A DNA stretch of 39,420 nucleotides from positions 1-39,420 of the forward strand of contig RDXM01000108.1 of NCBI GenBank assembly GCA_004292595.1. The letters are read 5' to 3'. The notes beneath the pieces are model-generated. The model saw only the letters and a program-made list of their open reading frames with translations. It had not been told where the DNA came from and did not search any database. Below, piece by piece: positions 10,230-39,420 of the stretch. The position numbers were made by a program, and so were the translations under genes. This stretch comes from Candidatus Kapaibacterium sp. GTDB taxonomy: Bacteria > Bacteroidota > Ignavibacteria > Kapaibacteriales > UBA4661. Every line of letters starts with the position of its first letter. Positions within the stretch are counted from its first letter, which is position 1.

Positions 10230-11285
10230 TCACGCGCCTTTGAAGTAGAGCATCGCACGGGGCGACTGCTGGAGACAACCATGCTCTAGCGACGCACCGC
10301 AGACGGCAAACCGAGTATTGGTGCTGTACGCATTCATAAGTTGCTCCCAAAGACTGATAGAATCTTCTTCGGCGGCATCAAAGAGCTGCTGATACGAGTG
10401 TTGGTGCGTATTTCCCGTAACAGGATGCTGATAAATTCCTTGTGTACTAATGTCTGCTTCTTCATCCAGAAATGTTTGCAAAAACGAATGCTTGGTGTAG
10501 CGCAGCGCGGTGTAGGCGCGAAGAGAAGCAGGCAACACATATTCGGTACGGTCGAGTAATGCTTGTAAGCGAGTATTTGTGCCGATTGTGCGAACTCTTG
10601 CCAATACTGCATAGCCCTGCAAAAGGTCGTCTGTATAAGGCGCAAGCGGCGGGAAGAGGCGCAAAAGTGCCGATAAATGCTGGGCTTCGGCATGGAGAAT
10701 GCTTGTAAGCGAGTATTTGTCTGGATTGACGGAATATGCCCGACAAAAAGCAAGGTCTAATGCGCTTTCCAGTGCGCGGTGGCGGCTCCATGCTTCGGTG
10801 GGCGATTGCCAGAGATTGCCAGAAACGAAGTAAATACGCGGGTGGAAACGGCAATCAGCGCAAATATGCGTACAGAGTCCCAAGAGAAACGCTTGCAAAC
10901 CCAAGATTTGGTGCGCTTTGCAGGCAGCGAGCGCAGAGAGACCCGCTCGGAGAATATCAAAACTATCGTCGTGTATAGCGAAAGAATCTGCGTCCTGCAC
11001 CGCTTCCGATGCAGCATGGAGGCGGTTTGCCAACCGAATTGCTTCGCGGCGTTGTGTGCCAACGAATACATCACGTGGGAAACTAAGCGTGTAATAGGGC
11101 GCATCGTGGAGAATTGCCCCGAGCAGCAGCATTCGCCGGCAATGCTCGTTGTGAAGCAAGGCATCGCTAAACCTCACATCGCGCAACTCCGCATCTGCGC
11201 TGGTCTTTGGACTGTTGTTCATGGACATCGCAGAACGCTTGGCAACGCGCTCGGCAAGCAGCCAATGGGTGAGTTCTTTGGGCAT
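10230..11285 (-). CDS. zinc-dependent phospholipase C-like protein
   Basis: 351 residues from the ATG at 11285, beginning MPKELTHWLLAERVA. This is the characteristic N-terminus of the Zn_dep_PLPC family, where Trp and His start the metal site. Further metal-site candidates are LHDAPYYTL (about residues 58-66) and the family-defining LGLCTHICADCRFHPRIYF near 135-153 (H..xD..xHP). There is no signal peptide in this start, as is common for the bacterial cytoplasmic members. The 50-residue upstream extension of the frame lacks family similarity and is not included. The gene carries a 23-bp sequence duplicated in two different reading frames (see 10558-10720), so its C-terminal half may have been altered by insertion. 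Catalytic activity and substrate are unproven. Confidence 0.8.
   Translation of the reverse strand: MPKELTHWLLAERVAKRSAMSMNNSPKTSADAELRDVRFSDALLHNEHCRRMLLLGAILHDAPYYTLSFPRDVFVGTQRREAIRLANRLHAASEAVQDADSFAIHDDSFDILRAGLSALAACKAHQILGLQAFLLGLCTHICADCRFHPRIYFVSGNLWQSPTEAWSRHRALESALDLAFCRAYSVNPDKYSLTSILHAEAQHLSALLRLFPPLAPYTDDLLQGYAVLARVRTIGTNTRLQALLDRTEYVLPASLRAYTALRYTKHSFLQTFLDEEADISTQGIYQHPVTGNTHQHSYQQLFDAAEEDSISLWEQLMNAYSTNTRFAVCGASLEHGCLQQSPRAMLYFKGA
10558..10720. repeat. pair of exact 23-bp direct repeats inside a gene
   Basis: The sequence AATGCTTGTAAGCGAGTA plus TTTGT occurs at 10558-10580 and at 10698-10720. The distance is 140 bp, not a multiple of three. The same DNA is therefore read in two frames of the phospholipase-like gene (DKYSLTSI and TNTRLQAL). 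It is a DNA-level, not a protein-level, repeat. Confidence 0.85.
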
Positions 11286-14185: not shown

Positions 14186-15538
14186 TCACAAACTATACAC
14201 CGCTTTTGCTGAAATCATACACGGAAGGCTGTGTTTGTGGGCTATTTCTGCGCTGAGTTGCGTGGCAAAGGTCTTTGCTTCATTGGCGGTGTCGGTATCG
14301 GGAACGCTGTATTGAAGCCATATGCCATCGGTATTGTCGGGGTGTTCTTCTTCGCTGAGGAAGTAGGCATCGGGGAAACGCTCGGTAAATGCCGCTTTCA
14401 CTTCTTGGACGGCAAGCCGCTTCAGTGCTTCTTTGCGGCGTTTTTCCAAGAGGTCGATATAGACAAAATCCAGCATCGAAGCCACTTCTTCAGGCAAGGG
14501 CGGCAGCGAACCGCGTGGAATCAGAAATGCGCTCAGAGCAGAGAAGTCCGTAAAGACGCGGTGTTGCGTCGTGGCTCGCATGAGATAATCGTAGCCGCTT
14601 GAGCCGCCCGTGCCGACTTTCATGCCAATCATCCGCATCACCATTTGCACGTGGCGGTATCGCCAAATCGAGAGAACTTCGTCGAGAGCCGAGAGAATAT
14701 CCAAAAGACGAAAAGGCAGATGCAGCAAGGGATATTCGCGGTAGAGCAGCGTAAAGAGCGCGGCTTGTGTGGCTTTGAAGGAAAGCCGTTTCTGTCCTTG
14801 CTCGCGGAGCTTGTTGTATTCTTCCTCGCTAAAAAACGCCCGAAAACTTTGCTCGTTCATGTCGGTTTGCGCAAGCATTTCCGTTTGCATCCGCTCGGCA
14901 ACACTGAGACCCGCTTCGCTGCTCAGGCGAATCATATTTCTGTCATGCTCGAACATTGCCGCAACCGCATTTTTGTACTCTTGCCAAAAAGAATACGACG
15001 GCTTTTGAATGAATGGCATTCGCTCCAGCCACGCCTCAATCACCGAAAAAAGCGTGGGTTCTTGCTCGGCGGCACGAATGCGTTCTTTATCCTCCGCCGA
15101 AAGCGGCAAATGCTTGGAAACACGCTGCTCGGAGCGAAGTCCAAGTTTGATTTCCACAAGGCGAAATTGCACCGATTGAAAGCCGCTTGCGGGATACAGC
15201 ACGTTGCGAAAGTCCAGAAAGTCCATGGGTGTCATGGTTTCCAGCACGTCTATTTGCTGAAAAAGTATCGGACCAATGGCGTGAATACGCTCCAAACGGT
15301 GCAATGCCGTCGCAACGTGGTGTTCAGGCACAACGTGATGATTGAACAAACTGATGGCAGAATCCAATTCATGCAAAATCTGCTTAAACCACAGTTCATA
15401 CGCCTGATGCGTGATGATAAACAGCATTTCGTCGTGCGCCGCCTCGCGTGGGGACGAGCCAGAACGCGGGTCTTGGGCATTCAGAATTGTGGGCAAACGG
15501 AGATAATCTCCGTAGTAGAGCGGTTCGTAGGCAGCCAT
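14186..15538 (-). CDS. kynA: tryptophan 2,3-dioxygenase with C-terminal extension
   Basis: Heme enzyme opening the tryptophan indole ring to N-formylkynurenine. From the ATG at 15538 it has 450 residues (MAAYEPLYYGDYLRL). Diagnostic motifs are IITHQAYELWFKQIL (substrate-site His44), FLDFRNVLYPASGFQSVQFR (substrate-carboxylate Arg126), WRYRHVQMVMRMIG (proximal heme ligand His296, by comparison with human His328) and GTGGSSGYDYL. The core ends near residue 370. The last 80 or so residues, including DNTDGIWLQYSVPD, form an extension I cannot assign. Bacterial forms are often about 280 residues, so this one resembles the longer eukaryote-like type. No kynurenine-pathway partner is next to it, and it converges on the histidine-phosphatase gene across repeat-filled DNA. 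Confidence 0.93.
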   Translation of the reverse strand: MAAYEPLYYGDYLRLPTILNAQDPRSGSSPREAAHDEMLFIITHQAYELWFKQILHELDSAISLFNHHVVPEHHVATALHRLERIHAIGPILFQQIDVLETMTPMDFLDFRNVLYPASGFQSVQFRLVEIKLGLRSEQRVSKHLPLSAEDKERIRAAEQEPTLFSVIEAWLERMPFIQKPSYSFWQEYKNAVAAMFEHDRNMIRLSSEAGLSVAERMQTEMLAQTDMNEQSFRAFFSEEEYNKLREQGQKRLSFKATQAALFTLLYREYPLLHLPFRLLDILSALDEVLSIWRYRHVQMVMRMIGMKVGTGGSSGYDYLMRATTQHRVFTDFSALSAFLIPRGSLPPLPEEVASMLDFVYIDLLEKRRKEALKRLAVQEVKAAFTERFPDAYFLSEEEHPDNTDGIWLQYSVPDTDTANEAKTFATQLSAEIAHKHSLPCMISAKAVYSL

Positions 15539-15556
15539 GATAAAAAAGAAAAGCAC

Positions 15557-15896
15557 CTGGTCAGGTCTCAACCATGAAGAGGGGACGCAGATGGAGATGA
15601 TTGGATTGATGAAGATGATATTGATAAAAAAATCAGAGCGTGAATGCAGACTTCATCCGTTGGGAATGGTACAAAAATAAGTGGTACAAGTCAGTAGTGG
15701 CAGAGACATTCTTGTCTGTGGTTGTCGCCTGAAACCTGCATCAACGCGCACAGACAAGAATGTCTGTGCCACTAAATATTGTTGAAGTGTATCCATTTAA
15801 TTTTTGAGCCTTCCTTGTTGATGTTTTCTGCATTTTCATCATCTTCATCCATTCCATCATCTTCATCTGCGTCCAAAAAAATCATGACCTGACCAG
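15557..15896. mobile_element. 340-bp MITE-like element with terminal inverted repeats
   Basis: Begins CTGGTCAGGTC (15557-15567) and ends with the exact complement GACCTGACCAG (15886-15896). Inside each end, GATGAAGAT-rich sequence continues as an imperfect inverted repeat, left end to about 15623 and right end from 15815. The right 86 bases (15815-15900) recur inverted at 39324-39409 with two mismatches seen. It carries no transposase and encloses a copy of the 78-bp double-palindrome element. It occupies most of the 427-bp gap between the dioxygenase and sortilin-like genes. No clear target-site duplication is visible. Confidence 0.7.
15696..15773 (+). repeat. 78-bp double-palindrome element, copy B
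   Basis: Left arm 15696-15720 (one change: CAGAGAC for CACAGAC), core 15721-15748, right arm 15749-15773. Each arm is itself a palindrome, and the two arms are complements of each other. Core orientation is as in copies A and C. It is followed by 43 bases shared with copy A. Confidence 0.92.
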
Positions 15897-15965
15897 TTAC
15901 AAAGAAAAAATGAACGGTGTAATATTTTTAGAATTTTTAGACTGAGTTTTGGGCTGAGTGCGGCA

Positions 15966-25501: not shown

Positions 25502-25579
25502 GGTGGCACAGACATTCTTGTCTGTGTTCCTTGCCTGAACGCTTCACCAACATTCACAGACAAGAATGTCTGTGCCACT
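25502..25579 (+). repeat. 78-bp double-palindrome element, copy C
   Basis: Arms 25502-25526 and 25555-25579, core 25527-25554, all the same lengths as other copies. Core orientation as in A and B. The 25 or so bases after it (AATTTTGTCGTGTACTGAG region) match, inverted, the bases before copy D, so these two copies share a flank. It fills much of the 231-bp gap upstream of proS. Confidence 0.92.
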
Positions 25580-27250: not shown

Positions 27251-27328
27251 AGTGGCACAGACATTCTTGTCTGTGAGTATTGGTGCAGGTTTCAAGCGAT
27301 GAACACAGACAGGAATGTCTGTGCCACT
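27251..27328 (-). repeat. 78-bp double-palindrome element, copy D (reverse core)
   Basis: Arms 27251-27275 and 27304-27328 with a 28-bp core. The core reads in the opposite orientation to copies A-C. It lies between the GT2 gene and the methyltransferase and supplies the spurious upstream reading frame of the latter. Confidence 0.92.
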
Positions 27329-29981: not shown

Positions 29982-30059
29982 CAGTGGCACAGACATTCCT
30001 GTCTGTGAACTTTTGTGCGGGTTTTAAGCGATAAACACAGACAAGAATGTCTGTGCCAC
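29982..30059 (-). repeat. 78-bp double-palindrome element, copy E (reverse core)
   Basis: Arms 29982-30006 and 30035-30059, 28-bp core in the same reverse orientation as copy D. Left arm has CATTCCTG for CATTCTTG. It lies in the 280-bp gap between the hotdog thioesterase and the sugar-transferase gene. I see nothing else in that gap. Confidence 0.92.
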
Positions 30060-30089
30060 TATTGACACCACTCATTTTTATCATATCGC

Positions 30090-39265: not shown

Positions 39266-39323
39266 AAAGCGGTCAATATCGTAAGGGGTAACGGCAAAAA
39301 AAACGTTTGAAGAACAATATTTT

Positions 39324-39420
39324 GTAACTAGTCAGGTCATGATTTTTTAGGACGCAGATGAAGATGATGGAATGGATGAAGATGATGAAAATGCAGAAAA
39401 CATCAACAATGGATGAAGTC
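39324..39420. repeat. end of the 340-bp MITE-like element family (second copy, continues past window)
   Basis: 39324-39409 is the complement of 15815-15900 with two mismatches seen. It begins GTAACTAGTCAGGTC and continues with the GATGAAGATGATG-rich subterminal sequence. The final TGGATGAAGTC differs from what adjoins the first copy but resembles the complement of 15647-15656. The element continues to the right beyond the window. Confidence 0.8.

What the first reader, a model, noticed from the sequence alone, without database searches (positions are those of the whole stretch)
15557..15896. MITE-like 340-bp element with 11-bp perfect terminal inverted repeats, second end at 39324
CTGGTCAGGTC and its exact complement bound the region. 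Subterminal GATGAAGAT-rich inverted repeats follow, and the right 86 bp recur inverted at 39324-39409 with two mismatches seen. Near identity of copies 23 kb apart implies recent spread or gene conversion. It carries no coding sequence, so a transposase in trans would be needed.
Basis: partly seen in the sequence, partly recalled or inferred. Interest (0 to 1): 0.6.

Follow-up and report, generated by a model that had tools for sequence, protein, structure and literature searches.

The report
IS66-type mini-transposon with nested second mini-transposon
The sequence is a short gene-less jumping DNA element, about 195 bases long and present in dozens of copies in this bacterium, that was split by a second, different short repeat element; it is very probably moved by an IS66-type transposase and is a well-resolved but ordinary genome parasite.

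Summary
The outer element is a MITE of 193-195 bp. Its real terminal inverted repeat is 15 bp (GTAACTGGTCAGGTC), not 11, and it is flanked by an 8-bp target duplication. In the window it spans 15553-15900, with AAAGAAAA at 15545-15552 and 15901-15908; the left tip has decayed from GTAA to GCAC. A second, unrelated 152-bp repeat (15663-15814) sits inside it, with a 3-bp duplication (TTG). Elsewhere in this MAG the outer element is uninterrupted, 92-96% identical between most full-length copies, and mostly has perfect 8-bp duplications. The copy at 39324 is another complete 194-bp MITE cut by the contig end: contig C92 supplies the other half (86-bp exact overlap, same TSD AATATTTT). GTAA-type ends with 8-bp duplications fit the IS66 family. 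A congener (G002) carries about nine near-identical IS66 tnpC elements with exactly this 15-mer at their ends, three with matching 8-bp duplications across contig gaps (0.0012 expected). The window's own genome keeps only an internally deleted IS66 remnant. Conclusion: a type II MITE very probably mobilised in trans by an ISBst12-like IS66 transposase; a new member of a known kind.

The parts
15545..15552 (.). left 8-bp target-site duplication AAAGAAAA
   Evidence: identical to 15901-15908
15553..15900 (+). composite: outer IS66-type MITE interrupted by inner element (348 bp)
   Evidence: alignment with 193-195 bp uninterrupted copies
15553..15567 (+). left TIR, GCACCTGGTCAGGTC (consensus GTAACTGGTCAGGTC; tip decayed)
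15886..15900 (-). right TIR, GTAACTGGTCAGGTC on the - strand
15553..15662 (+). left part of outer MITE
   Evidence: 93-96% identical to the left parts of the best-matching copies
15815..15900 (+). right part of outer MITE
   Evidence: 94-99% identical to most other copies
15583..15619 (+). subterminal inverted repeat, left arm
15838..15874 (-). subterminal inverted repeat, right arm
15660..15662 (.). TTG, left 3-bp target duplication of the inner element
   Evidence: uninterrupted copies read CGTTGTTG here
15663..15814 (+). inner 152-bp repeat element (GGAATGG...CCTTCC), nested
   Evidence: other full-length copies 84-94% identical with the same borders; 3-bp duplications at most
15815..15817 (.). 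TTG, right 3-bp target duplication of the inner element
15695..15720 (+). left arm of the palindromic core of the inner element
   Evidence: 26-nt arms, 96% complementary
15749..15774 (-). right arm of the palindromic core of the inner element
15901..15908 (.). right 8-bp target-site duplication AAAGAAAA
39316..39323 (.). 8-bp target-site duplication AATATTTT of the second MITE copy
   Evidence: matches the flank of the MITE end on contig C92
39324..39420 (-). second MITE copy, first 97 bp; the rest lies on contig C92 (194 bp in all)
   Evidence: 86-bp exact overlap with the C92 end
14186..15538 (-). host gene: tryptophan 2,3-dioxygenase; the insertion (first TSD copy) begins just upstream of its ATG
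   Evidence: PF03301 8e-90; the G005 orthologue lacks the insertion

Best explanation
15553-15900 is a miniature inverted-repeat transposable element (type II MITE, native length about 195 bp). A transposase of the IS66 family (single-ORF, ISBst12-like group) recognises its 15-bp ends GTAACTGGTCAGGTC in trans and inserts it with an 8-bp target duplication. Here it landed a few bases upstream of the start codon of a tryptophan dioxygenase gene. After that insertion a second non-autonomous element of 152 bp, from a different transposition system with a 3-bp target duplication, jumped into it. The left tip has also mutated (GTAA to GCAC), so this copy is probably immobile. Shown by sequence: borders, both duplications, nesting order, copy number, and the same 15-mer at the ends of IS66 elements in a congener. 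Inferred: mobilisation in trans by that IS66, loss of mobility of this copy, and which transposase moved the inner element.
For: Uninterrupted 193-195 bp copies, mostly 92-96% identical to the window copy with its inner insert left out. Across distinct TIR-paired GATGAAGAT elements in G000 and congeners, 19 of 29 have perfect and 4 have 7/8 8-bp duplications. Six exact duplication pairs link MITE halves across contig ends, 0.0013 expected. The second copy is completed by contig C92 with an 86-bp exact overlap. Congener G002 has 9 left and 9 right IS66 tnpC ends beginning with exactly GTAACTGGTCAGGTC, with 3 exact 8-bp TSD pairs across contigs, 0.0012 expected. In G001 a PF03050 DDE_Tnp_IS66 match lies directly inside GTAACTAGTCAGGTC. 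In G000 contig C11 holds an internally deleted IS66 remnant between ATAACTGGTCAGGTC and a decayed opposite end. ISDge4, an ISBst12-group IS66 element, has TIRs GTGACTACTCAGCA / GTAACTGCTCAGCA and an 8-bp repeat (PMC12898284), and two Paracoccus IS66 elements have 8-bp repeats (PMC3281130). Nesting: uninterrupted copies read CGTTGTTG at the insertion point, and the inner element has the same borders and 3-bp duplications elsewhere.
Against: No intact IS66 transposase was found in the window's own genome, nor a complete one in any congener; multi-copy IS elements fall into assembly gaps here. The sequence shared by MITE and IS66 is confined to the ends. A few diverged copies show no target duplication.
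Confidence: 0.9

Rival explanations
1. One native 348-bp MITE, with the shorter copies being deletion derivatives.
For: The window copy has both TIRs and a perfect 8-bp duplication around the whole 348 bp.
Against: Only this copy has the insert. The 152-bp piece occurs alone at many unrelated sites with the same borders and its own 3-bp duplications, and the 195-bp form is the common one.
Confidence: 0.02
2. A plain inverted duplication or gene conversion between two places in the contig.
For: 98% identity of about 89 bp 23 kb apart.
Against: Dozens of copies genome-wide; the two window copies have different 8-bp duplications (AAAGAAAA, AATATTTT) and the second is a complete 194-bp MITE.
Confidence: 0.02
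3. The MITE is moved by a transposase of another family that also makes 8-bp duplications, and the resemblance to IS66 ends is convergence.
For: No intact IS66 gene in this genome; only the ends are shared.
Against: The exact 15-mer is at the ends of an IS66 in the same genus with the same duplication length, and a remnant of such an IS is in this genome.
Confidence: 0.06
4. The repeat is kept for a host function (hairpin in the leader of the tryptophan dioxygenase mRNA, terminator or regulator) rather than being only a parasite.
For: It lies just upstream of the start codon and has an extremely stable predicted fold (-153 kcal/mol, z -16.6).
Against: The G005 orthologue lacks it; any inverted-repeat MITE folds well; copies sit at unrelated sites; no Rfam match.
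Confidence: 0.05

Closest known systems
IS66 family insertion sequences, ISBst12 group (e.g. ISDge4 of Deinococcus geothermalis, PMC12898284)
   Same: Ends of the form GTAACTGsTCAG (ISDge4: GTAACTGCTCAGCA), 8-bp direct repeats; the congener IS encodes an IS66 transposase with these ends.
   Different: The window element has no gene and is natively about 195 bp.
Bacterial MITEs, e.g. Chunjie of Geobacter and MITECca01 of Cardinium (PMC10969869, PMC9769881)
   Same: Short, non-coding, terminal inverted repeats, many copies, need a transposase in trans; MITECca01 likewise shares its ends with a parental IS.
   Different: Here the inferred parent belongs to IS66 (IS982 for MITECca01), and this copy contains a second nested element.
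REP/BIME-type palindromic repeats
   Same: The core of the inner element is a paired palindrome (CAGACAAGAATGTCTGTGCCACT), abundant in the genus and in this contig.
   Different: The inner element as a whole has fixed borders and 3-bp target duplications, so it behaves like a MITE.

Membership tests
MITE | short, no coding sequence | tested here: met
   193-195 bp native length; no ORF of 100 aa or more lies within it, and the two listed ORFs that reach into it are extensions past the dioxygenase start or its antisense
MITE | terminal inverted repeats | tested here: met
   15-bp GTAACTGGTCAGGTC at both ends in most copies
MITE | target-site duplications of fixed length | tested here: met
   8 bp; 19 of 29 perfect and 4 at 7/8, plus pairs across contig ends
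MITE | multiple copies at unrelated sites | tested here: met
MITE | empty site in a relative | tested here: inconclusive
   the G005 tryptophan dioxygenase orthologue has no insertion before its ATG, but its upstream sequence is too different to align base by base, so this shows absence rather than a clean empty site
MITE of the IS66 family | same ends as an autonomous IS66 | tested here: met
   identical 15-mer at IS66 tnpC ends in G002 and G004
MITE of the IS66 family | same target-duplication length as that IS66 | tested here: met
   three exact 8-bp pairs across contigs in G002
MITE of the IS66 family | intact transposase available in the same genome | tested here: not met
   no PF03050 or PF05717 match in G000; only an internally deleted remnant. 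Not strictly required for membership; a collapsed or unbinned multi-copy IS, or past loss, remains possible
MITE of the IS66 family | mobilisation in trans by the IS66 transposase | not testable with these tools
   needs a transposition assay
ISBst12 group (single-ORF IS66) | tnpC reading frame begins right behind the end, with no tnpA/tnpB before it | tested here: inconclusive
   the tnpC-like frame begins about 50 bp inside the left end in G002 and G004 and PF05717 is absent from G000, but no complete IS was recovered

The most novel reading that the evidence does not exclude
In this genus one IS66-type 15-bp end drives a whole set of unrelated MITE families: GATGAAGAT type, CGTAG-hairpin type, GGCGGCTG type and others, each with its own palindromic core and 8-bp duplications. 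This would suggest that the IS66 ends repeatedly capture unrelated hairpin repeats, possibly helped by the fold-back structure.
Probability: 0.25. Interest if true: 0.4.

Novelty: new member of a known kind. Interest (0 to 1): 0.22.

Why it matters
IS66-derived MITEs seem little described; none was found in the open papers searched here, which is not proof of absence. The element also explains part of the fragmentation of this MAG: some twenty contig ends lie inside elements with this end, and matching target duplications lets such contigs be joined. Beyond that it is a routine mobile element.

Tried and rejected
A native 348-bp MITE: rejected, since other copies are 193-195 bp and the middle is a separate repeat. 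Inverted duplication or gene conversion: rejected, since the target duplications are independent. An autonomous copy in the own genome: not found. Lone ends on C11, C70, C76 and C183 were read out; C11 is a deleted IS66 remnant, the others are different TIR-sharing elements or ends whose partner was not found. A known RNA: no Rfam match. Literature searches combining IS66 with MITE terms gave no description of an IS66-derived MITE. The autonomous partner of the inner element was not searched for.

Full report
Observation. Both 11-bp ends are at the stated places and are exact complements. Allowing one mismatch the window holds three matches against 0.36 expected; genome-wide there are 60 exact copies of the 11-mer against 0 of the reversed control. 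The 37-nt subterminal inverted repeat is real, and the right end recurs inverted at 39321-39409 with 98% identity.

Borders and duplications. Aligning the ends of all copies shows that GTAA precedes CTGGTCAGGTC at almost every end, so the true TIR is GTAACTGGTCAGGTC. Outside it lie 8-bp direct duplications, perfect in most paired copies. The window copy is 15553-15900, its left tip mutated to GCAC, flanked by AAAGAAAA on both sides.

Composite nature. A search of the own genome with the window element gives two kinds of match: bases 18-123 and 276-364 of the query adjoin each other in many copies, while bases 124-276 match other places on their own. Uninterrupted copies are 193-195 bp and most are 92-96% identical to the window copy with the insert left out (the low values of several copies in that table come from diverged copies left in reverse orientation). 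The 152-bp insert 15663-15814 has fixed borders GGAATGG...CCTTCC and 3-bp duplications (TTG here; TAA, TTA, AAA, ATA, TAT elsewhere) at most of its copies. Uninterrupted outer copies read CGTTGTTG at the insertion point, so the inner element entered an already formed outer element.

Second copy. The window is the whole contig C73. The copy at 39324 is cut by the contig end after 97 bp. The end of contig C92 holds 183 bp of the same MITE; the two overlap by 86 bp without mismatch, and the flanking octamers are the same duplication (AATATTTT), giving a 194-bp element. Six such pairs of contig ends were found with 0.0013 expected by chance.

Source of the transposase. GTAA-type ends with 8-bp duplications pointed to IS66. 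No IS66 domain was found in the own genome. In congeners the same 15-mer stands at the ends of IS66 elements: in G002 nine left ends lead into a tnpC N-terminus-like frame and nine right ends lead out of a tnpC C-terminus, and three left/right pairs share an exact 8-bp duplication (0.0012 expected). In G001 a PF03050 match lies directly inside GTAACTAGTCAGGTC. A G007 relative of the same C-terminus scores over the PF03050 cut-off. The own genome has one internally deleted remnant on C11. A published ISBst12-group IS66 element, ISDge4, has the end GTAACTGCTCAGCA and an 8-bp repeat (PMC12898284); two Paracoccus IS66 elements have 8-bp repeats (PMC3281130). Only the ends are shared between MITE and IS, which is the definition of a type II MITE (PMC10969869).

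Range. The query sequence was found only in the genus among 41 genomes compared, the outer part clearly in G000 and G005 and the inner core more widely. The exact 15-mer occurs in 6 of 123 genomes of the order, five of them in this genus. Congener records G002 and G005 correspond by match position to Ignavibacteria MAGs JAAFHM and JAAFIV, and one G007 element is the same as in a Candidatus Kapaibacterium MAG; the window organism is therefore inferred to be a Kapabacteria-like bacterium. Several other short elements in the genus share the 15-bp end but have unrelated cores.

Setting. The insertion begins a few bases upstream of the ATG (15538) of a tryptophan 2,3-dioxygenase gene on the - strand (PF03301). 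The G005 orthologue, 92% identical in protein, lacks it, although its upstream region is too different to show a base-by-base empty site. The leader RNA would fold strongly (z -16.6), but this follows from the inverted repeats and is not evidence of function.

Verdict. A new member of a known kind: an IS66-type MITE interrupted by a second MITE-like element. Transposition is shown by the target duplications and the copies at unrelated sites; mobilisation by IS66 is a strong inference.

Noticed in passing
window 25502-25579, 27251-27328, 29983-30060, 32-54: The palindrome pair CAGACAAGAATGTCTGTGCCACT (arms 55 bp apart), which forms the core of the inner element, also occurs in three other places of the contig and as a half at 32; 9 matches against 0 expected. 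It is abundant across the genus.
   Followed up: partly
L216, L245, L109, L110, L130, L199, L221 and other loci of G000 and congeners: Other short elements with the same 15-bp ends, many with 8-bp duplications, but unrelated palindromic cores.
   Followed up: partly
L213 (G004 contig C85:1-124): An IS66 right end abuts a 29-bp piece of an IS66 left end, as if one copy had inserted into the end of another.
   Followed up: no
L067 (G000 contig C180:1-126): A MITE left end is interrupted after about 33 bp by sequence beginning GGGCTGTTGCATCC, possibly another IS.
   Followed up: no
window 10558-10588 and 10698-10728: A 31-nt direct repeat (90%) AATGCTTGTAAGCGAGTATTTGTG within an ORF on the - strand; similar stretches seem to recur in the translated ORFs there.
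   Followed up: partly
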